A DNA stretch of 64,000 bases from Labia minor (Eukaryota; Arthropoda; Insecta; Dermaptera; Spongiphoridae): NCBI GenBank assembly GCA_963082975.1, contig OY720346.1, positions 42,509,296 through 42,573,295 on the forward strand, in the 5' to 3' direction. Below, one piece after another: positions 1 through 56,629 of this stretch. Within the stretch, counting starts at the first letter, position 1. The number at the start of each line of letters is the position of its first letter. Below the pieces are notes generated by a model that was not told the DNA's origin, searched no databases, and was given only the letters and a program-made list of their open reading frames with translations. The position numbers were made by a program, and so were the translations under genes.

Positions 1-561
1 TGCCTTCATGGTTTTATTTTGAAATTTCTGAATTATGTTCATATTAGTGTTGTTTGTTGTTCCCACAATTGAATAACATATGTCCACATTGGTCTGATCT
101 GCTTATTGTATAATAATAGTTTGTTGTCTAGAGTCACGTTAGATTTACGACCTATAAGCCAATAGTAGTTTTAATTGTAATTGTTTTTTTTGTCCGTATG
201 TGAATCTCTCAAGTTAGTCTTCTGTCTAACAATAAGAAGACTTAAACCTAACGACTTGATACCCAATAGACTCAAATATCTTTCGACTAATGGACCGTCA
301 GTTTGATTTAATATATATATCTTCTCTTACTTGTCCCTCATAATATCCCCATCATCTTTTTTTCTATCTAAATCCTCTCTAGTATATATTATACCTATCC
401 CATTAATATCTATCTATATACCCCTCATAATATTCCTCTATATTTAATTGTATATATTTTGTATATATATTACCATTACATGTTCTTATGATGCCTCAAA
501 TAAGGTAGATGTAGAATAAATGTATTTTATGGAAACTAAATAAAAAAATTATTTATTTAAT

Positions 562-601
<40 letters not shown>

Positions 602-1782
602 TAATTAAATTAAACTAAAATCTTATTTTTTTCACTAAAACTGATTTTTATTTTTTAAAATTTAATTTATTAAAATATATATATATATATATATAAACAT
701 ATATTTATTTAAATATAAAGATAATTAACTAACAGCATCTGTTTGCATAATTTTGAACTCTAAAATAAACTAAAAGTTAAATGCCACTTTGACCTATTTT
801 TATTTTTTTTTTTGTTTTGTTTGTTTTTGTTATATATATATATATATATAAGAATGTGTACAAGAGAGAAAGAGAGAGTTAAACTTTATGCTATTATGGT
901 AAGTAAAGTGGTAGGCAAACAACACAAAACCTCTTTCTACTCTCCACTCTCTCTTCCATTTTAACCCTTTAACCCTTTATTTTCTTACTTTAGCCCATTT
1001 GCTTATAGTTGGTACACTTTTTGTGTCTTTATTTATTATATAGTCATATATATATATATATATATATAGTCATATATATATATATATATAAGATCGGAAA
1101 GTAAATATATTTACTTTATGTTTCATTGGACACATAAAATTAAATAATTTTCATTTATTATTTATAATTTAATTGAAAATTAGTTAATATAATAGTTAAT
1201 ATATATATATATAACAGTCATTAAACCAAAGTGTATTAATAATTTCTTATATAAAGTGCCAAATATTTCATGATTAAATGAATTGTATATATAAATCCTA
1301 TATATCAATATAGTAAAGTTTTTTTATAATCAATTTGAATCGTATCGCTCAAATTATTTGATAGCTTTTCAAATCACATCATCATAGCTTCACTAAATCG
1401 GTGTCTTTCTAAATCGTGTCTTCAAAATCATGCTTTACAAATTCATGTTTTAACATCTTATAAACTCAAATGAATTTTTTTTTAAAATACTATTACAAGT
1501 TAAATTATCATTTTGGCCATCCAATCAGCTGAAACTGGGACTCGCGCCAAAAGAATACTTGTATCAAGATGACGTCACAGAAGGTAGCTTACGAGGGTAT
1601 CGTCGTTTAATATTAGTTTACCTCGCTGACCCTTACTATGACTAGGTTACTTTACTGGCCCTTTTGAAGGACTGTATATCAACAAAGAACTTATTCAATA
1701 GCTCTTTTCAAGGCTTCTATATTAACCTAGAAGGTTAATTCTACTCCCACTTTCATAAGAGTGATATTCTTATATACCTATT
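1..1782. other. AT-rich non-coding stretch with TA microsatellites
   Basis: No coding exon is recognisable. The stretch has several (AT)n tracts, the main ones near 565-598, 677-694, 832-850 and 1047-1090. A slightly less AT-rich block at about 1515-1700 contains a CRE-like GATGACGTCAC but no open reading. It probably belongs to an intron or the 3' flank of the CUB gene. Confidence 0.5.
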
Positions 1783-1790
1783 GTATATAA

Positions 1791-2094
1791 CAGTGATTCC
1801 CAAACTGTGAGCCGCGAAAAAATTTCCTAATACTTGAAATTTTAAAAAGGTAAGATGATTTGAAAATTTTGCAACATTCTGTCTCTAAGAAAAAAAAGCT
1901 CAACCATTTTTTGGACCAAGCTTTTGAACATTTCATACTTTTTCAATTTGCCTCTAGAAAAAAAGTCAAACGTTTTCTGGACCAAGCATTTGAACAATTT
2001 CTTACTTGACATATGGTCACCCTAATTATGGGAGCCGCGGAAAAAATCCAATGTATTATGGGAGCCGTATACCGAAAAAGTTTGGGAACCTCTG
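1791..2094. mobile_element. Non-autonomous hAT element with exact 8-bp target duplication
   Basis: Terminal inverted repeats begin CAGTGATTCCCAAACT on the left and, reading inward from the right, CAGAGGTTCCCAAACT. The element is flanked on both sides by the identical 8-mer GTATATAA (1783-1790 and 2095-2102). CAG-type ends with TTCCCAAACT and an 8-bp duplication are diagnostic of hAT transposons. The 304-bp length and lack of a reading frame make it a MITE. Inside are two imperfect copies of a roughly 60-bp unit (about 1888-2007) containing GGACCAAGC, and a GGTCACCCT motif at about 2015 resembling the end of the element at 8759-9314. Confidence 0.85.
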
Positions 2095-2399
2095 GTATAT
2101 AATCTATATATATAAAGGAGAGTGTTTGTATGTATGTATGTATATATATATGTATGTAATTTGTTTACTTTTTTGCTGTCATAGAAACAAACAAAAAAGA
2201 AATTCCCAATCAAAGAATTAAAATAATATTTCACTTTTTATTTTAAATTCTAATATTCAAATATCATTTCACACAATTAAATAATTTATTCTAAAAAAGT
2301 TCTCATTTTAATTAATATAATAAAATATTTAAATCATATTTAACTTAAATTTTATTTTGTATTTATTCTTTCTATATTTGAATACTTCTTTTATTTTAA

Positions 2400-3849
2400 G
2401 AGAGGGAATTAACTATGATCTAAAAAATTAATAAATGAACTTAATAATAAAAAATCAAATAAATCCATTAATTTAAATTAATACTATTAATGAATGTATA
2501 TATTGTTAATTTATCTTTAGTTTTATCAATACTTTTATACCGTTAATTTTTATAAATTGTTTCAAATTTTATTATAATTAAAAATATTCAATAAAAATCA
2601 AGCAATGAAATTAAAATATCAAAATGAAATGATCAAGAAATATTATACTCTATTATAACATATACAATACTTATAAACTATAGGCGGAGGAAATATTAGA
2701 CGATATCATTGCGGGTTCAGGCCAAATCGATCAACATTAATTAAGATATTTTCATTATGACAGATATTAAAAAAACCGCGAATTCAATAATTCTGTTCTT
2801 TAATTATTTGTAGACTTTAGTAAAACCTACGCATGACTCAATAGATCCGGATAAACTTTTTCAAATTTTGATCTTAAAATTTATCTTGAAGGTAGTAAAG
2901 AATGAGTAAGATGTGGAAATCAATTGTAAAATATTAGGTTACCCAGACGACTTAAATTTAATAGGAGATTCGGCAATTGCAATTACAGATAGCGAGGAAA
3001 AATTAATCGAGGTAGGAAAAGAGATGAGGTTTGAAATTAATAATGATAAATAAATATATTTAGAAACAAACAGGAGCAGTATTCCTGTAGAATTTGAATA
3101 TGTAGAAAAATTGAATGTAATCACGAAGGATAATAATATTTGAGAAGAATTTAAATAGAAGTTGCAATCGGGAAACGCCTGTTATCATGCAGTAAAGAGG
3201 CTTATCTCATCAAAATTATTATAAAAGGGAATGAAAATTAAAATATATAAAACAATTATTTTGTCAGTTGTATTATATGAGTGTGAGACATGGTCTATGA
3301 TCTTAGGAGATGAGAGTGGATTCAGAGTATTTGAGAATAGGATTCTCCCCAGCATGTATGGGCCAAAGAAAGATGAGTACATCAGGGAATGACGTACGAG
3401 AGATGGAACAGAGGTTCAGGATAAGGACACTTGGAGAAATGTGGTTGTAGCTGCCAAGAACTTTCGAGTACCGTTGAGTCACGCATGGTCTATGACCCTG
3501 GGAGATGAGAGTAGATTCAGATTATTCTTTCCAGCATTTATTGGCAAAAGAAAGTTGAGGTCACCGGGGACACTTGGAGAAATGTGGTTGTAGCTGCCAA
3601 GAACTTTCGAGTAGATAGATATAACATATTCAATAATAATATATATAATTAATTTACTAAATAAATTAAAATATATTTTAAATAATCACACAATAAGAAA
3701 TGAATGTTTTATGTTATACATTGTTTTAAACAAAATGGATGAAAACCTTTTACTACTTTCAACCAAATACTATGTACCACTCGGGGGTACAGGGGGCGGA
3801 GCCCCCGTCTAGATGTGAAGAGCGACGAAGGAGCTCTGAGCAGCTAGTA
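2400..3849 (+). mobile_element. Decayed LINE fragment: RT C-terminal region and 3' tail
   Basis: The plus strand carries broken reading with reverse transcriptase features. A catalytic-box remnant Tyr-Pro-Asp-Asp lies at 2940-2951 (normally YADD), followed by LNLIGDS. Downstream are remnants of the C-terminal region typical of arthropod endonuclease/RT LINEs: GNACYHAVKRLIS, an E-T-W motif near 3288 and RDGTEVQDKDTWRNVVVAAK near 3400-3460. A second, partial copy of the last segment follows at about 3480-3615. The 3' tail ends with GC-rich hairpins at 3774-3849. Stops and frameshifts interrupt it throughout, so it is dead. An inverted copy of its 2400-3140 part lies at 47225-47975. Confidence 0.7.
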
Positions 3850-3861
3850 TATATTATATAT

Positions 3862-4782
3862 CAGGGATGGCGAACCTTTTTCAAACCTTTTATAAAAAAT
3901 CTTTTTGAAAAAATTAACGTGCCACAAAATTGTCATTATTTTTTTCTCCACCTCTTTTGGCGTTAATATATAATTGAATATTTTTGTATAAATTCTAACT
4001 ACCCTGTATAAAAGTGTTATAGTTTTAAATATTAAATTTTATATGAAAAAATAAAATGATTTTTAAAAAATTTGGAATTTATTTATGGTAAAAATATATC
4101 TTTCATATTAAATTGTCTTATTATTTTTTTTTTACTTTTATTGTATGAAAATTTTTTAATTGATTTTAGTTAGTAGTGGTGTGGACTCATATAATTTCAA
4201 ATATTTAACTGAATTTTAGGCAAATTCACATTTCCTAATTTTTAAATTTTTAAAATTTTTTTTCTTGTTTTATTATTCTAATAACTTTCTTTCTATCTCA
4301 GATGATATTCAAAAATTAAGATATTATCAATGTAATTTCCACCAAATTCTTGTAAATTATTTAGCGATTCTGGCACTATTCTCTAACCGTCCCAATGATG
4401 AAAAATCAAATTTGGATTCTCCAGGCTATGAAAAGTGAAGTGAAAAGCAAAACATTTTAAATCTTGAACAATGCGATTTGTACGGCAACAACACTCAATG
4501 ATATTAACAGAAGTTCAAACACCAAATTGCATACACTGTATTTATCATGAATGTTTTTATACTGCGAAGTAATTGAAGCGACATTTCAGTAATAAATTAT
4601 ACAATTTAATCTAATAAGATAGATAAATAAATTACTAGAAATTTCATAAATTATAATTTTAATGCGGATTGTTCAATTTTAATTCATTTCTATTGAAAAA
4701 AGTTATAATTATTAAAAAAAATAATCTTGTCTTTGTGCGTTCCATCAAAATTTTCAAACGTGCCATAGGATCGCCATCCGTG
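3862..4782. mobile_element. hAT-like element, 921 bp, CAGGGATGGCGAACC ends
   Basis: The left end reads CAGGGATGGCGAACC. The right end, read inward, is CACGGATGGCGATCC. Flanks are TTATATAT and CTATATAT, a 7-of-8 target duplication. Both the CAGGG-TGGCGAACC type of end and the 8-bp duplication are characteristic of hAT (ZBED-related) transposons. No intact transposase frame is visible. It sits directly after the LINE tail and just downstream of the 5064-4921 exon in the CUB gene's direction. Confidence 0.75.
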
Positions 4783-4920
4783 CTATATATCAATAAATAA
4801 ATATATATATAGGCTGAATGGTTGATTAATATAAAAAAAGAGTATGTAAACTATTTGTGAATTATACAATTAATTATTACTGATAAATCACATAACCATA
4901 TAAGAGGGCTGTTTACTTAC

Positions 4921-5064
4921 TGGAAGATGAATGTTGCTGGACCACGATCAGCAAACAACACAACAGGCGGTGCAAAACGTTCATTACCACCGCATATCAT
5001 CGAATCTGCAAGACGATGTTTTGGTTCTGTGCCGTCGACCAATTGAACGAATCCACCTTCGCAC
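4921..5064 (-). CDS. CUB domain, C-terminal half (exon)
   Basis: Internal exon on the minus strand, 144 bp, acceptor TTTGTTTCTAG and a strong donor GTAAGT. It begins with one base and ends with two. The preceding exon ends with AC and this one starts with G, giving an in-frame Thr codon. The translation begins CEGGFVQLVDG and continues through MICGGNERFAPPVVLFADRG and an ATFIF strand. This is the canonical second half of a CUB domain: Cys-x-Gly-Gly-hydrophobic, Asp-Gly, Cys-Gly, the proline region, then the final hydrophobic strand. Phase continuity plus a correct domain join across a 6.9-kb intron is strong evidence that both exons belong to one gene. The next exon is not visible before the left edge, so the gene continues outside the window. 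Confidence 0.85.
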
Positions 5065-5215
5065 CTAGAAACAAATTATAATTATTATAATACAATGTTG
5101 AAATGAAATTTAAAAAATAGAACCATCTAGCTATCATCAATCTCTGTGACTCTTTTGTACTTAAAAGTTCATGGTCGCGTCGCAGCCTCCATACGTCCTT
5201 AATTCCATTCATCTC

Positions 5216-7535
5216 CTAGTTTCCAAAAGATCATTATTATGTTTTCTGTCTAATTTGTTCTTGTTTTAAAGATTTCTTTAAACAAACTTTTTAGAAAACT
5301 TTCTACATTTGTGCCCTGAGTGAAATTTAACTTTTATTGGGAATGCATAGAGATAATGCAATTCTTCGTTATGCAATATCAGCGATTTCTAAAGGATTTA
5401 AACTTTTCCGGTCTCTGAGATTCGAAGAAATTTATTATTAATTACCCTCCATTTTTATTACATCTACATATTACTTTTTTATAGGCGGTCTAATTGAACC
5501 ATAGATTTCGAAAGACAAAAAAATATACCTACTTACTTTGCTCATATATATAAATATATATATATAATTGCGAATATGTACTAATATAGAATATTATATA
5601 TTTAAATATAATATAAAAGAATTTTAATTTTATAAATTTGGAATCCTAAGTGATGCGGGTTGCATAAAGGCAGGAGCCCCTATAAGGACGGAAGAGAACG
5701 AATTAGTTTTTTACCGATGTAGATCAAAAATAATTTTTTTTTTTCAGGTAATAAATAATTAATGAAATAAATATTAGTAATATATGATTAAATCATTTTC
5801 TGTATTGTCCAATTATGACATAAATTTAGAAATTTGTTTCTTTATCTATTCTATTCTAACATTTCTAGATAAAAAAGAAATACAATCCATTTTCTTTTTT
5901 TTTCTTTGTTTTTGTATATATATATATTCTACTTCTTTTTCTTTTACTTTCTCTTTTCTCATTCCAATTTCCATTTTGCACCCACACACTAAACAGTACT
6001 CAAAGTAGTAATAGTAGCAATGTCAGACAATGATGGATCACAACGCCCCATTACTCATTACTGACTGTACTACACCTACAATCCCCACCCATCACTAAAA
6101 CAGAAACCACTTGACGCAATGACCTTCTTTTTCTCACTTTATTCCATCCTTTCTCTTTTATTCTCACCAATTTAACTAAATATTTAAACATTAAAATTAA
6201 TATTATTTTAATTAAAAATAGCTCATATATATATGACAATAAGCATATATAATTTTATTATTATTCATTTACTTTTATACTCTCAATTTCATTTAAATTT
6301 AGTTGACGTATACCAGATTTTAAAAATTCATATTTATATATAAAATATCTCTTTTCTTATTTAATTTTATTTTTATTATTTTTAGTATTATTTTGTGAGT
6401 TTATGGATTTTGTAAAATTAATACAACGTCTACTAATATTGTTAATAATAATAATAAATAAAGCTTGTTACGGTGTGTCATTGATGTTATAAAATAATTA
6501 ATTCATTTATAATAATAAATGAGTTTTCGCTTTGATTTGTCAAGTGACGAAATAAAATTAATATTACATTTTGTGAAAATTAACTCTCTCTCTCTCTTAC
6601 TCCTATATAGTATATACCACTCATTATATACATTTTCATTCCTTTTCCCTTTTGTCAGTCGTCTAATCTTATGCTTTTTGATTAAGAGAACACAAATCTC
6701 TCTTTCTCTCTGTTCTTATCATTTTCTTCCGTCTTTTCATTTAACAACTCCCCACCAACCTTCACTAACAGCCACTCCACTCCTCACCCTTCTGATTAAA
6801 AAAAAATAGATGAAAGTGAAAGTGAAACTCAAAAAGTAAAGTGCAAACACCATACATTAAGAATATTATTAAAATAGTTTCTTATTTTTATTTAAAATTA
6901 AAAAATAACAAATTAATTAATTAATTAATTTATAATTCAAATTTTATAATTATAATATAAAAATTAATAATTTTTTATATTTTATTAGATTAAAAAAATA
7001 TAAACCTTTATAAATGTTATTTTTTTAAATGATAAATTATGAAGAAGTTATTTTTTGGTTTAATAAAAAAAAAAAATTTCAATTGCTTACCCAGCTAAAT
7101 CAGCTCACTTTCCATTCATCGTTTTATTTTCACTTCAATTTATTCAATTAAATAAATAATCAATAACCAATGAACTTGAAGAACTTTTTAACCTTGATGA
7201 TAGAATATTGGTAAAAAAATAACAATAAAAACATTTACAAACCCAAAGAATTTCATTCAAGGTTTAATGATTTTATTTTATCCTTTAAAATATACATATT
7301 TAACTAATAATAATAAAAAATTCATAATTTTAGTTATTTATTTATTTTCAGTATTTAACGTATATTTTAAACAAAAAATAATTGAACAAAATTATGAAAA
7401 AACTTCATTTTTATTTTTAATTAAAATTAATTTAGTATTATTCCAATTTTATTTATTTAATTAATCATTATATTTAATATATTAATTTTGGCATATTTAT
7501 TATTATATTATTCATTATTATCGTATTATTTTATA
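5216..7535. other. Intron sequence without recognisable genes
   Basis: AT-rich sequence inside the CUB gene intron. Pyrimidine-rich stretches (5930-6000, 6580-6790) and short AT repeats are present. Small open frames here have low-complexity hydrophobic translations and no domain features, so none is annotated. Confidence 0.5.
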
Positions 7536-12149: not shown

Positions 12150-12884
12150 CTACGAACAAAAACACAGACAATTTTTTTTTTAATATTAATAATAATAATA
12201 ATAATAATAAGACAAATACATATTTTCATTTAAAACAAAAAAAAAATATTATTATTATATACATGAATTAACTTAATGAATAAAAAATTAATTGAATGCG
12301 AAAATTTAAGAATGTACCAAATTAGTATCACTTACAATATAAATATCTAAAATTTATTTTACTAACAAAATACTATTTACATATTTTAAAAGGAAAGTTT
12401 TTTAAAGGGAAGAATCGACCTGTTAATGTCTTATTTTTTATTAAAGCATTTTAATTATTTTAACTTCTTATTAAATTAAAATAATATAGGTATAATAGAA
12501 TACTAAGGATATCATAATCAAAATCATGATGAAGTCATAATTAAAGGATGCTTTTTAGGCTAACTAAACGTATTTCAAAGTATAAATAAAAATATATAAG
12601 TTGTTTAGATCTCAAACTTTCTCTACAGTTCCCTGCAATGCTAGTTATACCAGATTTTTTTTATATTTAAGCAGAAACCAATTAATAGTAATAAAATGAG
12701 TGTATTTAACAATTATTATTAACTCTTAAATTATATTTTTGTATTTAATTATTGTTATTTAATTTTAATTTCCAGTTGTTTTTAACTATGTTATGTTATA
12801 TTTTTTTATATTCCCAACATTATTTATATATATATATAATGAATATTATAAAACATTACAATAATGAAAAAATATTGTATAATT

Positions 12885-13197
12885 ACGAGGAACATTCAAT
12901 AAGTAAAGAGACTCAAAACGTTTATTTAATTCTTACAAAATTCAGGCTATTTTTCAACCCCTACAGTTATGCACTTACCCCATCTTTCTTGCAGCTTCCT
13001 AAGCTGACCCGTAATATGCTTCAAAAATTGGTTTGGTAGGTCTTACCTCATCCAGCCTACAATCCTGACCTCGCCCCATCAGAATTTTATCTATTTGGAC
13101 CACTCAAATACGACCCAAAAAAGGTTTGCTAATAATGAGGAAGCGGTGCAAAAGTTGCTTCGGGGTAAATTGAAAGAATTCTTCACCAAGGGAATTA
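12885..13197 (+). pseudogene. Mariner transposase C-terminal remnant
   Basis: The plus strand at 13043-13129 reads LPHPAYNPDLAPSEFYLFG and continues to a stop. A shifted frame continues with NNEEAVQKLLRGKLKEFF up to about 13197. The His-Pro-x-Tyr-x-Pro-Asp-Leu-Ala-Pro-Ser-(Asp/Glu) block is the classic region around the last catalytic Asp of mariner transposases. The left border at about 12885 (TACGAGGAACATTCAATAAG) resembles a mariner terminal repeat. The upstream catalytic part is missing and the right terminal repeat is not found. Confidence 0.7.
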
Positions 13198-13399
13198 TTT
13201 TTCTATTATTTTTTTTCTTTATTAATCGAAATAGTGTATAAGTGAATTCATTATTTCGAAACTAACTTTAAATTATAATTTAATATATATATAATATATA
13301 TAATATAACATAATTTTTGATAATTGGTATGATTCATATTAGTCGGAGAGTTTTAAAGGCGTGAACTGAGAATGTGTATCAATTAACCACCATATAAAA

Positions 13400-14640
13400 A
13401 GTCTTATAATAATAATAATATATATATTTTTATATATTGTTTATTTTTTTATTTTTTATTTTTATTAATTAATAAGTATTAATAAGTATTTGATAACTTT
13501 TATTCAATTTTAATTTTATAATTCGATATTATCTATATATATATATATATATATATATAATTTCCGTCGTATGTATGTGATGTCTGTAACATTATGAAGT
13601 TAGTTACGAATAAATTGTAAAAATTAATTTAATTTGTAACTAACTTCTTTTTAAATTTTGTTTTGTTAAATTAAATAAGTGCCAAATAAAAATATATAAA
13701 AAAATTATTAGGACGATTAAAGTTATATATATTTAAACATTGTGTTGTTTTGTAAGTATTTGAAACTAGAAGCAGCTTGTCCCTGAGAACAGCTAGTAGT
13801 CAATATAATTCAATTAATTATGTAACTTTCCAAAAAAGTAAAGGGGTTGGAATTTTTGAATAAAACTCCGACCACTAATTTTTTATAATTCAACTCAGAG
13901 CATGAACCTTCTTTTGATTAACAGGGTGCCTCCTTCAATAATTTCTATGGAAGTAAATTATAGCATTAATCAAAACTTAGTTTCTTGACTATAATTTTTG
14001 TGTTTATTTTTTTTTAAAATTAAATCTTACTTTCGATAAACTATACAAAGGGCTTAATTATTTGTAACATTATTTTGCAAATCCGATTCCTTTATTATAG
14101 ATATTTCAATCATTAAATTTTCACGGGGTTTTATTGTTTTTGCCATCGGGAATTTCACTTTGATCAAATTGCTATAATATTATTTTCATAAATCATTATA
14201 TTATAATTAATTCTTCGTACCTTTGTCATATTATTATTTTGCTTTATTTTTTATTAATTTGTTTGTTTTGTTATATCAACACCAACGTCAATTGTTTTAT
14301 AATTTTAATCCTTAACAATTTACATTTGGATAAATTATTATTATTATATCATAGCCGGGTCCCTTCCAATTTTCCTTGACGAACCCCAATGCTTTATCCA
14401 AATATAATTTTCATAGTTTGCATATAATCTATAAAATATTATTGGTGACATACACTATGTTTGTCATATACCCCCTGAAGTCTATCATTTTTAACCTATC
14501 TTCTTTTTCTTATTCTGTCTCAGTAGAGTGACTAGCTGCATGTAAGACCCTATCTTTAAAAAGCCTATTTTCTCTCACAGACTGAGACTCAATTAATCGT
14601 TTTTTTTTTGTGGCATTCTGGAAAAAAAAAATTCTAACTA
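13400..14640. other. AT-rich intron stretch
   Basis: No exon recognised. It has a (TA)n tract near 13532-13558 and a short inverted match, GAAGTTAGTTAC (about 13593) against GTAACTAACTTC (about 13638). Nothing else supportable. Confidence 0.4.
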
Positions 14641-14885
14641 AAATGTAGAGTCAAATTTGAAATTTGTTATTATCGATTGTCATGGTAACGTTACGTTTGC
14701 ATGGAAAAAAGGGCTATTTTTAGGGGGTTCCCGGAAATTATTCTATTTTTTCTTATCTTTGGACTTCAACGAACATTTAAAAAAAAGAATTGGCAAAATT
14801 GGTCTAGGCGTTATTGAGTTATGCGCTTACCAACATATTTTGCGATTCATTTTTACCGACCGACGATAGTAAGGGAGGTATTGTT
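14600..14885. repeat. Repeat ending in the 5' end of a Helentron-like element
   Basis: A block including TGGTAACGTTACGTTTGC, GGCGTTATTGAGTTATGCGC and finally TTTTTACCGACCGACGATAG with AGGGAGGTATTGTT (to 14885). The last 36 bases are the same as the starts of the elements at 25300 and 48409. Here the rest of that element is absent, so this is a truncated copy or a solo 5' end. Confidence 0.5.
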
Positions 14886-15310
14886 ATATATAAGATTAGA
14901 GAGATTTTATTCTGTATTTAATATTTTTTTCTATGATATTGAACCAATAAATAAATATAACAAAATTAAAAACTGTTCTATTGCAAAATATAAATATAGA
15001 TTAATTAAAATTTCAAGTAATAATATGTTTAATATATAAACATTAATTCATATTTTTAACATTCAAATAATATTTTTTTATATTAATTAAATAATTTATT
15101 ATATTCCAAAAGTTAAATTTTTCTAAAATTAAGCATTTTTTTTTTAATTAAATAAGAATAAAAAAGAAAAAATTGAAAAGGTTCAAAAAGGCATGAAGAA
15201 AAAAAAATGAAAACAATGAATGATGCATCTTTATTATTATTATTTGTTTAATATTTATTTAAATTTAAGTACTTTTTTGTTTTTTGAAAGGGAATAAATA
15301 GAACAAAAAG

Positions 15311-15346
15311 GGAAAGATGACGTCAGATGCAAATTAACGTCATAAG
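15311..15346. promoter_or_regulatory. Candidate intronic regulatory cluster: CRE palindrome, octamer and second ACGTCA half-site
   Basis: About 220 bp downstream of the donor of the cysteine-rich exon lies TGACGTCAGATGCAAAT followed shortly by AACGTCAT. TGACGTCA is the full CREB/ATF palindrome and ATGCAAAT is the POU octamer. Having both plus another ATF half-site within about 30 bp in otherwise AT-rich intron is unusual. No conservation data are available, so a role in expression of the gene is inference only. Confidence 0.25.
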
Positions 15347-15568
15347 CAGCATTATTATTAGTAATAATAATAGTAATACTAGCAATAGTAGAAATAGTAT
15401 TATTAGTAGCTTTGCATATTCAATTATGACATTTAAATTAAGTTAAGATACCCTCTCTCAAAGAAATTAAAAAGGCATATTAATCAATTTTTTTTTATTT
15501 TCTTGTTTTTTATTCTCCACAAGGATTTCCCATTCTCCCTTTTTAAACAATAATGATAATAATAGTAC

Positions 15569-15730
15569 TATTATTGCAATGTCGTTCCAGTCCGCATTGG
15601 GCACATCGATGTGGTGATGCCTTTCCACAATGACAACCGCCATCACGGACACAGCATGCACAATTGCGAACCGTTGCATTCCATGGACACGCGCATCCTT
15701 GCGCCTCTTGAGTCCATAAATCCACTTGAC
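15569..15730 (-). CDS. Cysteine-rich exon of a CUB-domain gene (partial gene, first visible exon)
   Basis: Internal exon on the minus strand. The acceptor is a pyrimidine-rich TTTGTTCTAG just above 15730; the donor is GTACTA below 15569. The exon is 162 bp, begins with two bases of a split codon and ends with one. The reading is open and rich in Cys, Trp and Gly, with clusters such as [23 protein letters not shown] and [10 protein letters not shown], about eleven cysteines in 50 residues. Such spacing fits a disulphide-bonded extracellular module. I do not recognise it as a named domain. Base composition is clearly more GC-rich than the flanks, as expected of a conserved exon. The closing phase (one base) fits the next exon at 11966-12149, which begins with two bases. 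The donor is weaker than those of the two downstream exons, so the exact 3' border is less certain. A secreted or membrane-anchored receptor-like protein is an inference from the cysteines and the CUB domain that follows. Confidence 0.7.
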
Positions 15731-16169
15731 CTAGAACAAATAATAATAATTATAATAATCATATCATAACATAACATCAATAAGAAAATAATTTTAATTG
15801 AATTTTGAAACTCTATAAAATATAGAGTTTATTAAATGTATAATATTCTTAAGAAATTTAAAATATAATACTTATAGTGATATTAAAGAAAATATGATTT
15901 TAAAAATTAATTTAAGAATTTAAGTGTAATAAAGAAAAAGAGACGAAGGTGGGGAGATTGGGGATGGGGATGATAGTGATTGAAAATGCCTCAGCTTCAT
16001 AAAACATGAATAATATATTTTAAAAAAAAATGTCGATCAACGTCACAACAACAATAACCACCCTTTACGAAATTAACAACAATAGCGTATTCTGACAATA
16101 AGTATTATTAATGAATTATTAATTAATTAAATAACACAAACATAACAAATGCTTATTTTATCAGTATTA

Positions 16170-25074: not shown

Positions 25075-25120
25075 ATATATTTTTACCGACCGACGATAGT
25101 ATAAGGGAGGTATTGTTAAT
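25075..25120 (+). repeat. Solo 5' end of the first Helentron-like family
   Basis: TTTTTACCGACCGACGATAG followed by TATAAGGGAGGTATTGTT is a nearly exact match to the starts at 25300 and 48409, with a two-base insertion, but not followed by the body of the element. Confidence 0.5.
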
Positions 25121-25295
25121 TTATTTCTTCCTCTTTATATTTTTTATTATTGTTAAAGCAAAGAGTTTTATAAATTCAGTCCTATCACGGACTCGCCAAA
25201 TTTATTATTCTAAATCAAAAGGCTTAAACCCCCTACTTGATTTAACTATTTTATAATTATAGAAAGACTGGTAAATCTACGGCCGCCAGCAAACT

Positions 25296-25942
25296 TTTTA
25301 CCGACCGACGATAGTAAGGGAGGTATTGTTTTCACACCAAATTTCACATGTGAAGATTTTTACATATCTTCACGAATCATGCATTTTCTTAACAGAAAAA
25401 AATATTTTTAGCATGATGTCTGTCCGTCCGTCTGTCTGTCCGTCCGTCCGTATAGATGTGTACAGCCTGAACGGATTTTGATGAAATTTGGTATATTTAC
25501 TTTATGCATCAGTGGGATGAATTGATCAACTTTTGGTGCAAATCCGGAAACCACCTGGTAGTATTAGCGATCGACGATAATAAGGGAAGGGTTATTTTCA
25601 CACAAAATTTCACATGAGGAGATTTTTTTATATATCACCACGAATCATGCACTTTGTGGTGGTTTTATACACGAGAAAAATCATCTTTATTAGTTTTTTT
25701 CTTAATTTAAAATTATATGACGTCATCCAGCCATTCATGACGTCACAGCCAGGTCTTATATATATTATAAATAAAATAAAATTAAAAATATTTATGTTAT
25801 ATCCATATCTGTTTTTTATTACATTAATAGATACATTAAAATTATTTGAAATTGTTTCTGTAGCTGGAAATTAATTTATTTCAAAATTCAATTCAATTCA
25901 ATTTATTTCGGTTCGGACCTGGCCACAGGTCAACTTATTTAA
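25296..25942 (+). mobile_element. Helentron-associated (DINE-1-like) element, family 1, copy 1
   Basis: The 5' end is TTTTTACCGACCGACGATAG. The middle carries a GTCTGTCCGTCC microsatellite-like block (about 25417-25450) followed by GATTTTGATGAAATTTGGTA. The 3' part has two CRE-like palindromes (ATGACGTCAT and ATGACGTCAC near 25717-25745). It ends with the stem-loop GACCTGGCCACAGGTC at 25916-25931 and AACTTATTT. The 3' subterminal inverted repeat present in the copy at 48409 is replaced here by an ATTCA repeat. No coding capacity; mobilisation would need a Helentron elsewhere. Confidence 0.65.
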
Positions 25943-32169: not shown

Positions 32170-32500
32170 TATAATATTTACCGGAGTATAATAAATTGAT
32201 AACGTCATTTAATTCTCCTATATATCGAATCCAATATAAAGATAAATCTTCTACTAAACATTGTGTAAAAAAAATCAAATATGAATATAATATAAATATT
32301 TTTAATTTTATTTTAAGAATAGATATAAATATCTCACAGGCGATGGTTGTGACGTCATCCATATATAAATTTAAATTAAGAAAAACTAATAAAGATGTAT
32401 TTTTCCAGAGATGTGATCAATAAAACTCAATTTTTCTTTATAAATACTATCTCTAGTGTGAATTTCAAAAACATCGTTAGAGCGGTTTTTGAGAACCCAT
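32170..32500 (-). repeat. CRE-core repeat, left inner arm of the inverted duplication
   Basis: Contains GTGACGTCATCC, AAATAAAATTAAAAATATTT in complement, and AAACATCGTTAGAGCGGTTT. It is the inverted partner of 33830-34240 and shares its core with the repeat at 10900-11190. Confidence 0.65.
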
Positions 32501-33829: not shown

Positions 33830-34240
33830 TTCTCTGTTTCTCTGTTTCATTGTTCTCAAAAACCGCTCTAACGATTTTTTTGAAATTCACAACAGAGATA
33901 GTATTTATAAAGAAAAATTGAGTTTTATTGATCACATCTCACGAAACTTTATTAGTTCTTCTTAATTTAAATTTATAATATATTGATGACGTCACAACCA
34001 CCGCCTGTGAGATATATATATCTATTCTTAAAATAAAATTAAAAATATTTATATTATATTCATATATTTGATTTTTTAATTTCATTAATAGTTTTACATT
34101 TAAATTATTTGAAATTGTTTCACACAACGTTTAAAAGAAGATTTATCTTTATATTCGATTCGATACATAGTAGGAGAATTAAATGACATCATCAATTTAT
34201 TATAGAACGAATCCGTAAATATATTTTTAATATTATATAT
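33830..34240 (+). repeat. CRE-core repeat, right inner arm of the inverted duplication
   Basis: Starts near AAAACCGCTCTAACG, contains GATGACGTCACAACC at about 33985 and the AAATAAAATTAAAAATATTT-type block. It pairs in inverted orientation with 32170-32500. Confidence 0.65.
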
Positions 34241-47224: not shown

Positions 47225-47990
47225 CAAGAAGAATTTTCCTACATATTCAAATTCTACATTTTGTATATTAAGATTTTGTATGTTAATGCTGTACCTCTTT
47301 GTTACTAAATATTTTTTCTTATCATTATTAATTTCAAACCCCATCTCTTTTCCTACCTCCATTCATTTTTCCTCGTTATCTGTAATTGCAATTGCCGAAT
47401 CTCCTATTATATTTAAGTCGTCTGGATAACCTAATATTTCACAATTGATTTCCGCATCTTACTCTTTTTTTTACTACCTTCAAGACAAATTTGAAGATCA
47501 ATTTTGAAAAAGTTTACCCGGATATATTGAGTCATACGTATGTTTTACTAAAGTCTACAAATAATTAGTGAACAGAAATATTGAATTCGCGGTTTTTTCT
47601 AATATCTGTCATAATGAAAATATCTTAATTAATTTTGATCGATTTGGCCTGAACCCGTGATGATATCTCCTAATATTTCCTCCGCCTATGGTTCGTAAGT
47701 ATTGTATATGTTAAAATAGAAATAGAGTATAATATTTCTTGATCATTTCATTTTGGTATTTTATTTTCATTGCTTGATTTTTATTGAATATTTTGAATTA
47801 TTATTAGACTTGAGACAATTTATAAAAATTAACGGTATAAAACTATAGATAAATTAACAATATATACATTCATTAATAGTATTAATTTAAATTAATTGAT
47901 TTATTTGGTTTTTTTATTATTAAGTTCATTTATTAATTTTTTTAGATCATAGTTAATTTCCTCTGTTAAAAGGAACTTATTTAATTTTGT
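47225..47990 (-). mobile_element. LINE fragment, inverted copy of 2400-3140
   Basis: The minus strand repeats, in the same order, the blocks around the RT active site (about 47412-47440), the CAATTGATTTCC / CCGGATATATTGAGTCATACG region and the AATTTCCTC end near 47970. It matches 2400-3140 over about 740 bp. It abuts the plus-oriented fragment 46965-47222 head to head. Confidence 0.65.
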
Positions 47991-48400: not shown

Positions 48401-49046
48401 GGTTTTTTACCGACCGACGATAGTAAGGGAGGTATTGTTTTCACACCAAATTTCACATGTGGAGATTTTTACATATCTCCACGAATCATGCATTTTCTAA
48501 ACAGAAAAAAGTATTTTTAGCATGATGTCTGTCCGTCCGTCTGTCCGTCTGTCCGTCCGTATAGATGTGTACAGCCTGAACGGCTCAACCGATTTTGATG
48601 AAATTTGGTAGATTTACTTAATGCATCAGTGGGATGAATTGATCAACTTTTGGTGCAATTCGGGAAACCGGAAGTGGTAGTATTAGCGATCGACGATAGG
48701 AAGGAAAGGGTTATTTTCACACCAAAGGAGATTTTTTTATATATCACCACGAATCATGCATTTTGTATTGGTTTTATCCTCGAAAAAAATCATATTTATT
48801 AGTTTTTTCTTGATTTAAAATTATATGACGTCATCCAGCCATGCATGACGTCACAGCCTGGTCTTGCATATATATTATAAATAAAATAAAATTAAAAATG
48901 TTTATATTTATTATTTATGTATCCATATCTGTTTTTTATTACATTAATAGATATATGAAAATTATTTGAAATTGTTTCTGTAGCTGGAAATTAATTTATT
49001 TCAAACCGTCGGTCGGTTCGGACCTGGCCACAGGTCAACTTATTTA
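48401..49046 (+). mobile_element. Helentron-associated (DINE-1-like) element, family 1, copy 2 (most complete)
   Basis: The 5' subterminal repeat is ACCGACCGACG (48409-48419). The internal GTCTGTCCGTCC block is at about 48526-48560. Paired CRE-like palindromes lie near 48826 and 48846. The 3' subterminal repeat CGTCGGTCGGT (49007-49017) is the exact complement of the 5' one. The terminal stem-loop GACCTGGCCACAGGTC is at 49021-49036, followed by AACTTATTT. About 640 bp, non-coding. Confidence 0.8.
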
Positions 49047-55150: not shown

Positions 55151-55331
55151 TCACATTGAAGAAGTTCCCGACGATGACTCCGAAGATGAAGACTAATAGA
55201 TAACTGAAGATGAATCTAATTCCGAAGATGAATATGAGAGCGAAGATGAAGCTGAAAAGAATGTTAAAATTAAAAATAAAACTTTTTCAAAAAAATCTCA
55301 GGTTAACACATTTTCCTTATCTCTTAGAGAT

Positions 55332-55769
55332 ATGGAAGGATCAATTAGAAAGTTAAATGGGAAAGATGGTTATTCCAGTAATAAATGGCTAGAAGAATTT
55401 GAAGAACTGGCTGAAATCACAGGGTGGAATGATGTACAAAAATTAATTTTTGCTAAAAAATCTCTTGATGGTCTAGCCCAAGTGCTAATTCAAGCTGAAA
55501 GAGGTCTAACGTCGTGGAAAAATTTAAAATATGTTTTGAAAAAAGAATTTATAGAAACAGTTAGCTGTGCTGACGTGCATAAAACGTTGATCACGCGAGT
55601 TAAGAAAAAAGAAGAAACAATTCAAGAATATACCCTTGTGATGAGAGAAATTGCGAGTAGAATAAATCTTATTCCAAGTGTGATTATTCAATATATTATT
55701 GATGGTATTCCTGATTATCAGTCAAATAAAATTCTTTTATATGGTGCCAAGACATTTTTTAGAATTTAA
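55332..55769 (+). pseudogene. Gag core of the gypsy-like element
   Basis: Open for 145 codons from MEGSIRKLNG. It shows the Retrotrans_gag pattern: WLEEFEELAEITGW, then a helix with LIFAKKSLDGLA, a W..L...L...F segment and a long amphipathic C-terminal part. An acidic Asp/Glu-rich run precedes it (55155-55260). The frame breaks near 55750 and continues in another frame to about 55887. Confidence 0.6.
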
Positions 55770-55905
55770 AGAAAAATTAAAATTGTATGAAACTTTTAAG
55801 AAAAGATTTCAAGAAACGAAAGAAATGAATAGAGATAAAAAGTCAACTTTAAATAAAGAAAATACAAAATCACAAGATAGGAATTAGAAAAGGCCTGGAG
55901 AAAAA

Positions 55906-56190
55906 ATGTTAAGATGTTACTATTGGGGCTCCAAGAGGCATGTTTCAAATAATTGTCCGGATAAAAGAAAAGGGTTAAAATGTTTTAATTGTAATGAGTT
56001 TGGGCACAAGTCAAAGAATTGTCCAAATAAAACGAAAAATAACGATGAAAACAAAGTCAAAATTATTAAACGAGAAACGAATCCAGACATGAAAAATATT
56101 TCAATAGAAAAACTTTCGATATCAGCGTTGCTGGACACGGGAAGCGATGTTAATTTGATAAGATATAACCATTTTTGTGAGTTAGGTTAA
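55906..56190 (+). pseudogene. Nucleocapsid zinc knuckles and protease start of the gypsy-like element
   Basis: Two CCHC knuckles. The second, CFNCNEFGHKSKNC, is intact (C-x2-C-x4-H-x4-C). The first has Trp in place of its second Cys (CYYWGSKRHVSNNC). After a Lys-rich linker comes LLDTGSDVNLI, the aspartic protease active-site Asp-Thr-Gly (about 56132). The frame stops at 56190; a decayed continuation (VPNLV near 56310) follows in the same frame. Confidence 0.65.
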
Positions 56191-56308
56191 AAAACTCTTG
56201 TTAAGAAGATCATCACCCTATCCAGCATTGGAGATAATAAAGTAACCTCTTTGGGAAATTTTCACGTTGATGTAGGTGTTGATAATGTCATAGTGAACAC
56301 ACTAATTC

Positions 56309-56629
56309 ATGTTGTTCCCAATCTTGTTTAAATATCCAGTTGTGTTAGGCCAAGAATTTCTCAAGAATGTAACTATTTACATGGACTTGAATGGAATAAC
56401 AGTCACGCCTATCAATAAAGAAATTGATTCTCAAGTTTTAAGAATTGAATATGAAAACCCCGAACTAGATTTAAGTCACATAACTAACAGAGAAGTGAAA
56501 AATAAAGTTGAACAATTATATAGAGGTTATAATCCTGATAATAAGTCGAAAGAAACTCCATTAATGATGAAAATAATTTTAAAAGATGAAATTCCCATCT
56601 ATCAAAGGCCAAGAAGGTTGGCACCTTAA
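56309..56629 (+). pseudogene. Protease end and reverse transcriptase start of the gypsy-like element
   Basis: Contains VVLGQEFLKNV (typical end of the retropepsin domain) and ends with IPIYQRPRRLAP, the conserved entry into gypsy-type reverse transcriptase. After a stop at 56627, remnants of the next conserved block (REGVIRPS and FASPIVLVNKK) are readable to about 56750, then the RT is cut off. Confidence 0.65.

What the first reader, a model, noticed from the sequence alone, without database searches (positions are those of the whole stretch)
48401..49046. Family 1 repeat has exact subterminal inverted repeats, an internal microsatellite and a terminal stem-loop: a Helentron-associated element
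ACCGACCGACG at 48409-48419 and its exact complement CGTCGGTCGGT at 49007-49017 bracket a non-coding body with a GTCTGTCCGTCC array. The 3' repeat is followed by the perfect stem-loop GACCTGGCCACAGGTC. This order is the published layout of Helentron-associated/DINE-1 elements, but the sequence family is not one I recognise. Full copies at 25296 and 48401 and solo 5' ends at 14850 and 25075 show dispersal.
Basis: partly seen in the sequence, partly recalled or inferred. Interest (0 to 1): 0.7.

Follow-up and report, generated by a model that had tools for sequence, protein, structure and literature searches.

The report
Abundant jumping DNA with short stubs
This is one copy of a very abundant non-coding rolling-circle transposon of a known kind (a Helentron-associated, DINE-1-like element), and the tiny 36-base "solo ends" beside it belong to a second class of true insertion, estimated at over a thousand in the same genome, that look like transposition events which stopped early at one fixed point.

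Summary
The window copy (48404-49044) has 11-bp subterminal inverted repeats, a (GTCY)8 array and a 3' stem-loop; the second full copy (25295-25939) lacks the 3' repeat. In the window's 604-Mb genome the last 38 bases occur 12,616 times exactly and the first 42 bases 15,772 times. Thirty-six of 39 fetched copies carry both exact anchors and share one pair of boundaries, T5|ACCG...stem-loop-AACTTA|TT. Empty sites show insertion into T-runs, most often with two T's gained and nothing else duplicated. No autonomous partner with these ends was found. New here: the "solo 5' ends" are 36-bp insertions, not debris. Forty-seven of 50 inspected genomic sites break off exactly at GGTATTG|TT; I estimate 1,100-1,270 such solos with a following T-run of 2 or 3, against 85 breaks at a control position. 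Solos use the same T-run targets, two of them in the very hotspot hit by full copies. Best reading: rolling-circle transfer that ends early just past the 5' partial inverted repeat. That termination step is inferred, not shown.

The parts
48404..49044 (+). Full-length copy B of the element (T5 ... AACTTA|TT), 639 nt from TTTTT to AACTTA
   Evidence: paralogues without this insertion in L114 (88.8% over 116 bp) and L079 (77%)
48404..48408 (+). 5' T-run at the boundary (exactly 5 T's in 28 of 36 copies; T6 in this copy, 48403-48408)
48409..48419 (+). 5' subterminal inverted repeat ACCGACCGACG
48427..48433 (+). GGGAGGT: 3' arm of the 5' partial inverted repeat, can pair with ACCGACC inside the subTIR (5 Watson-Crick pairs + tandem G.A)
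   Evidence: weak fold, z about 0; published counterpart in DINE-1/HINE
48434..48439 (+). ATTG|TT: the point where solo 5' ends break off
48459..48482 (+). Second hairpin, arms GTGGAGAT (48459-48466) and ATCTCCAC (48475-48482); copy A has GTGAAGAT/ATCTTCAC, a paired change on both arms
   Evidence: z -4.1
48527..48558 (+). (GTCY)8 microsatellite; 8 units in 31 of 36 copies
48683..48767 (+). Internal diverged second copy of the element's own first ~90 nt
   Evidence: 75.8% identity; same in other copies
49007..49017 (+). 3' subterminal inverted repeat CGTCGGTCGGT
49021..49036 (+). 3' stem-loop GACCTGGCCACAGGTC, presumed terminator
49037..49042 (+). AACTTA, last element bases before the TT of the target
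25295..25939 (+). Full-length copy A, older (87% to copy B), 3' subTIR lost, stem-loop kept
14850..14885 (+). Solo 36-bp 5' end: TTTTT + ACCG...GGTATTG + TT
25080..25117 (+). Solo 5' end with a 2-bp (TA) insertion; the only place in the genome where this variant is followed by a non-T
47895..47971 (+). Empty site (T7) paralogous to the insertion in L120
2391..2468 (-). Second empty site (T6, 96% identity) paralogous to the insertion in L120

Best explanation
The element is a non-autonomous rolling-circle transposon of the Helentron-associated (HINE / DINE-1-like) kind. A Helentron Rep-helicase acting in trans would nick at the 5' end next to T-runs, peel off one strand, stop at the 3' stem-loop followed by AACTTA, and join the copy into a T-run. 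The abundant 36-bp solo 5' ends are the same reaction stopped early: transfer starts at the normal 5' end but the strand is cut just after the 5' partial inverted repeat, at ATTG|TT instead of AACTTA|TT, and the 36-nt product is joined into the same kind of T-run. Shown: layout, boundaries, T-run targets, copy numbers, that solos have one fixed right end and, where an empty site could be read, are true insertions. Inferred: the Rep mechanism, the role of the stem-loop and of the 5' inverted repeat as terminators, and that full copies are the donors of solos.
For: Boundaries: T5|ACCG and AACTTA|TT in the 36 of 39 fetched copies that have both exact anchors. Exact ends 12,616 (3') and 15,772 (5'), reversed-pattern controls 0. 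Empty sites with +2 T: L028 (8 filled, 6 empty), L029 and L117 (8, 6), L042 (8, 6 if its lost A is taken as a T) and two of three paralogues of L120 (9, 7). Solos: sequence breaks right after GGTATTGTT in 510 places, 29 of the first 30 listed are true solos; after GGTATTGTTT in 863 places, 18 of 20 inspected are true solos; a control break about 12 nt further on occurs 85 times. Solo L098 has two paralogous empty sites with T5 against T7 filled. Solos L132 and L144 lie in the same antisense T6 hotspot as full copies L029, L042, L117, 8 T's against 6. A left T-run of exactly 5 is seen in 41 of 49 solos and 28 of 36 full copies. The TA variant of the window solo at 25080 occurs once in the genome in solo form: no sign of a solo lineage in the one variant tested.
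Against: The 5' partial inverted repeat folds no better than shuffled sequence (-2.2 kcal/mol, z -0.01), so a hairpin-terminator role for it is weak on energy alone. The +2 T can be read as element-borne T's without duplication or as a TT duplication. Not every empty site gives +2: L120 against its closest paralogue gives +3; the window copy gives +3 against L114 (T6 then C) and 0 against the more diverged L079 (T9). Three further solos nested in family copies (L131, L135, L146) do not give a clean +2 by eye against copy B. No autonomous element with these ends was found. Solos were counted only where the following T-run is 2 or 3.
Confidence: 0.85

Rival explanations
1. The 36-bp solos are a self-propagating minimal element: start signal and stop signal in 36 bp, mobilised in trans, multiplying from solo donors.
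For: Solos contain the whole 5' end and whatever stops transfer at ATTG|TT, and are numerous.
Against: The one solo variant tested (window 25080, extra TA) occurs once in the genome in solo form. Only one variant was tested, whether full copies carry it did not complete, and the 510/863 counts require the unmutated 31-mer.
Confidence: 0.1
2. Solos are deletion remnants: full copies that later lost everything after base 36.
For: Left ends are like those of full copies.
Against: Unrelated host DNA follows directly at one fixed base in 47 of 50 inspected sites; at L098, L132 and L144 the right flank is intact with only two T's added. Deletions would have variable ends.
Confidence: 0.03
3. The element is a MITE of a cut-and-paste transposon with a TT target duplication.
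For: +2 T at several empty sites is compatible with a TT duplication, as once argued for DINE-1.
Against: The 3' inverted repeat ends 25 nt inside the end and is followed by a stem-loop; 5' ends that insert alone suggest one-ended transfer; ends and layout match HINEs.
Confidence: 0.05
4. The element is a canonical Helitron derivative moved by one of the many RGLPH-type Helitron transposases of this genome.
For: 23 of 30 fetched Rep loci are of the RGLPH (Helitron) type, five with a 1,652-aa open frame.
Against: No 5' TC, no 3' CTRR, insertion in T-runs rather than between A and T.
Confidence: 0.05

Closest known systems
DINE-1 / INE-1 of Drosophila (Yang and Barbash 2008, PMC2374699; Thomas et al. 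2014, PMC4067079)
   Different: subTIR 11 bp (DINE-1 13 bp) with another sequence; no tandem central array in the copies read but one diverged internal copy of the 5' region; exact-end counts of 12,616-15,772, above the 334-5,424 BLAST hits listed for Drosophila (a different measure); a discrete class of 36-bp solo 5' ends, not mentioned in the passages I read
HINEs of Metaseiulus (mite) and Culex (PMC4067079)
   Same: subTIRs a few nt from the 5' end, 3' palindrome, T-rich target, variable terminal T's, no clear target change
   Different: mite and Culex subTIRs are themselves palindromic, here not; here the 3' subTIR starts 36 nt from the end (mite: about 38-60 bp away)
Cg_HINE of oyster (PMC7492417, passages only)
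   Same: 11-12 bp subTIR, 7-12 bp complementary IR 1-12 bp away, 4-nt microsatellite, 3' palindrome
   Different: oyster elements carry satellite-like tandem arrays
Helraiser / Helibat truncated and de novo 3' ends (PMC4778049)
   Same: truncations and read-through with a new 3' end, more frequent when the 3' hairpin is deleted; de novo 3' ends in 39 of 395 Helibat copies, put down to several causes
   Different: here one fixed site, estimated at over a thousand times, in a family whose stem-loop is intact; the passages I read describe no such fixed site

Membership tests
HINE / DINE-1-like (Helentron-associated) | Subterminal inverted repeats of at least 11 identical bp | tested here: met
   11 bp; 3' copy exact in 33 of 36 anchored copies; absent from window copy A
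HINE / DINE-1-like (Helentron-associated) | Stem-loop downstream of the 3' subTIR near the 3' end | tested here: met
   (z -1.9)
[quoted passage not shown]
   ACCGACC/GGGAGGT, 7 nt after the subTIR, with a 2-base internal mismatch; fold weak
HINE / DINE-1-like (Helentron-associated) | GTCY microsatellite, non-coding | tested here: met
   (GTCY)8 in 31 of 36 copies; no open frame of 100 aa or more inside either full window copy, one of 96 aa in copy A
HINE / DINE-1-like (Helentron-associated) | Insertion into TT / T-runs | tested here: met
   TT in the two places after AACTTA in 36 of 36 (34 of 36 with exact AACTTA); T-runs at the empty sites read
HINE / DINE-1-like (Helentron-associated) | No target-site duplication | tested here: inconclusive
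   Mostly +2 T: element T's or a TT duplication cannot be told apart in a T-run; nothing longer is duplicated
HINE / DINE-1-like (Helentron-associated) | Autonomous Helentron (Rep/helicase/endonuclease) sharing the ends | tested here: inconclusive
   Rep ORFs with the RGSPH signature exist; the 2,181-aa ORF at C1:47868109 also has PIF1 and a weak Exo_endo_phos_2 match, E 0.00099, below cut-off. A 5' fragment (1-534) of the element lies upstream of it but no 3' end. Three Rep families (four loci) were examined with long flanks; most of the 104 hits were not
Canonical Helitron | 5' TC, 3' CTRR, insertion between A and T | tested here: not met
   Ends T5ACCG and AACTTA|TT
MITE of a DDE transposon | Inverted repeats at both termini and a fixed target duplication | tested here: not met
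   3' repeat is internal to stem-loop and AACTTA; duplication ambiguous

The most novel reading that the evidence does not exclude
The 5' partial inverted repeat of HINE/DINE-1 elements is a built-in early terminator: roughly one transfer in ten stops there and inserts a 36-bp stub, so the genome carries a natural record of one-ended, strand-wise (rolling-circle) transposition and of the termination rule (structure, 4-6 nt, then TT). In the boldest form the 36-bp stub holds every cis signal and is the smallest mobile unit of this class.
Probability: 0.45. Interest if true: 0.68.

Novelty: new variant of a known kind. Interest (0 to 1): 0.5.

Why it matters
The full element alone is one more HINE family, though a very large and partly recent one. 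The solo class matters because Helentron mobility has been inferred from structure, and where and how transfer starts and stops is an open question. A fixed-length 5' product, estimated at over a thousand copies and with empty sites for some, is natural evidence that the 5' end alone can insert and that a second stop site exists. It can be tested in other HINE-rich genomes (flies, mites, oyster) by counting breaks just past the 5' inverted repeat. It also warns that repeat annotation may miss 36-bp insertions.

Tried and rejected
Autonomous partner: of 30 Rep loci held, 27 show the HUH-region motif, 23 RGLPH and 4 RGSPH. In the 30 loci (1.5 kb flanks) exact element motifs were found only in L072 (stem-loop and 3' subTIR), whose Rep match holds eight stops. 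The 1,785-aa RGSPH family (C9:34498524, C6:19230938) starts TTTTACCACGTTTTTC, and the shared 3' end that I could compare has no such stem-loop. C1:85855789 has only short, weak matches to the element and no ends. C1:47868109 has a 5' fragment about 1.9 kb upstream of its ORF, but the 150 bp left of that fragment recur exactly just upstream of the ORF, so I read it as an insertion into a duplicated stretch, not as the partner's own end. The remaining hits were not checked with flanks.

3'-only solos and strictness of the TT rule: these pattern searches did not complete, nor was the search for the TA variant in full copies. In the first 10 listed loci with the exact 3' end none was a 3' solo: 7 near-full-length, 1 fragment, 2 composites.

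Empty sites: the printed output was cut, so I saw only part of it. L004/L011 (against window 11157), L005, L017 (against window 4046) and L028 (against window 37585) also align across the junction but too loosely to count T's.

Viral and phage collections: no match for the 5' 31-mer or the element. Host: looked at only briefly, not named. Rfam and tRNA scans of the window were empty.

Pairing of exact ends on C1 0.26-4.25 Mb: 29 of 100 5' ends have an exact 3' 38-mer at 500-720 bp, 55 none within 12 kb. Both ends had to be exact, so this is a poor measure of truncation, but it leaves room for other truncated forms that I did not study.

Paper searches (open-licence full text only) showed me no description of fixed-length solo 5' ends in their listings; PMC4067079 and PMC2374699 do not use the word 'truncat-'. 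That is not proof of absence from print.

Full report
What is there. Copy B runs from 48404 to 49044, copy A from 25295 to 25939, and solo 5' ends lie at 14850-14885 and 25080-25117. Copy A is 87% identical to copy B and has lost the 3' subterminal repeat. Two features were not in the finding: a 5' partial inverted repeat (ACCGACC inside the subTIR, GGGAGGT 7 nt after it), and an internal, diverged second copy of the first ~90 nt (48683-48767). A hairpin at 48459-48482 folds well (z -4.1) and shows a paired change between copies B and A.

Copies and boundaries. The window lies in a 604-Mb genome of 71 contigs. The best 40 copies scored there, this copy included, are 98-100% identical; they are the best of 1,507 candidates, so a biased sample. 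I fetched the 39 others. Thirty-six have exact 5' and stem-loop anchors; the other three are L024, L037 and L039. In those 36 the left end is exactly T5 preceded by A or C in 28, and the two bases after AACTTA are TT (34 with exact AACTTA; L042 and L046 vary). Thirty-two of 36 are 639 nt long and 31 of 36 have eight GTCY units. The first ten places listed for the exact 3' end were older: 7 near-full-length at 88-98% identity, one fragment, two composites. The exact last 38 bases occur 12,616 times and a 42-base 5' end (TTT onward) 15,772 times; reversed controls gave 0.

Target. Empty sites came from nested insertions and paralogues already in hand. L029 and L117 sit in an antisense older copy at a run that is six long in all 36 anchored copies: filled 8 T's, empty 6; L042 is the same site but reads 8 only if its missing A is taken as a T. 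L028: 8 against 6. L120: 9 against 7 in two paralogues and 6 in the closest one. The window copy (9 T's): T6 then C in L114, T9 in the more diverged L079. So the insertion goes into a T-run, most often gains two T's, and duplicates nothing longer; T-run length varies between paralogues, which blurs the count.

Solo ends. The first 31 bases from ACCG to GGTATTGTT followed by a non-T occur 510 times. I inspected the first 30 listed: 29 are followed by unrelated DNA, one (L084) is a point mutant of a full copy. L093 and L094 have the same flanks and L108 nearly the same, so about 27 are independent. With one more T the count is 863; of the first 25 listed I fetched 20, and 18 are solos, two point mutants (L133, L141). 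The five I skipped all had C or G next, where mutants are likelier, so the true share lies between 18/25 and 18/20. That gives about 490 + 620-780, or 1,100-1,270 solos with a following T-run of 2 or 3. A break about a dozen bases further on, again where the next base should be T, occurs 85 times (that pattern starts inside the 5' end, so it also admits copies with a changed subTIR). If solos have T-runs of 4 or more as often as full copies (14 of 36), the total would be about 1,800-2,080; that is extrapolation.

Solos are insertions. Solo L098 has two empty paralogues in L089, ATA-TTTTT-AAAA; the filled site is ATA-TTTTT-[ACCG...GGTATTG]-TT-AAAA: seven T's against five. Solos L132 and L144 lie in the same antisense T6 hotspot as full copies, 8 against 6. 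Three other nested solos (L131, L135, L146) are less clean. Of 49 solos, the two of the window included, 41 have a left T-run of exactly five. The TA insertion in the window solo at 25080 is found once in the genome in solo form; full copies were not checked for it.

Mechanism. Reported for the Helitron Helraiser: the left end is needed, the right hairpin acts as a terminator, and truncated products become more frequent when it is deleted (PMC4778049, passages and section 12). Here the stop points are parallel: stem-loop + AACTTA|TT for full copies, inverted repeat + ATTG|TT for solos. I propose that the 5' inverted repeat is a weak early terminator. Against it: that repeat folds no better than chance, so protein recognition of the repeated subTIR letters, rather than a stable hairpin, may be what stops transfer.

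Known relatives. The element meets the published structural criteria of HINE/DINE-1 (PMC4067079 section 3 and section 4 parts 1-2; PMC2374699 passages and section 6 part 1; PMC7492417 passages). It fails canonical Helitron criteria. Helentron-type Rep genes exist in the genome: four near-identical loci with YWWR...RGSPH, one 1,754-aa and one 2,181-aa open frame with RGSPH, the last with PIF1 and a sub-threshold endonuclease match. None was shown to carry this element's two ends, so the autonomous partner is not identified.

Verdict.

Noticed in passing
L123 and L126 (C1:358005-358705, C1:441490-442190); window 3328-3853: Two of ten copies taken for their exact 3' end carry the 3' end of a non-LTR-retrotransposon-like repeat (also in the window at 3328-3853) fused at element base 472: a composite subfamily, probably amplified after a retrotransposon landed in the element (class of that repeat judged by eye).
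   Followed up: partly
window 32266-32496 and 33852-34078: A second repeat family in inverted orientation shares part of the element's 3' body (about 74-78% over 110-136 bp) but not its ends.
   Followed up: no
G000:C9:43365333, C9:45506044, C10:14925745, C1:82181971, C2:51174103, C5:81088381, C9:43358460: Seven copies of a canonical Helitron (RGLPH) with identical Rep score, five of them with a 1,652-aa open frame: a young Helitron family beside the Helentrons.
   Followed up: no
L078/L076/L079 and L080/L074/L081/L116: A Helentron-type element (RGSPH, 1,785-aa Rep-PIF1 frame, DUF6570 match) without a detected endonuclease, 5' end TTTTACCACGTTTTTC: possibly Helitron2-like.
   Followed up: partly
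family copies, antisense T6 run (window 48505-48510): The A6/T6 run inside the element is a recurrent landing site for new copies of the same family, in antisense (L029, L042, L117, left side of L024, solos L132, L144).
   Followed up: partly
window 55200-56629: Degraded Gypsy/Ty3-like gag with a CCHC zinc knuckle (the gag match is below its cut-off).
   Followed up: no
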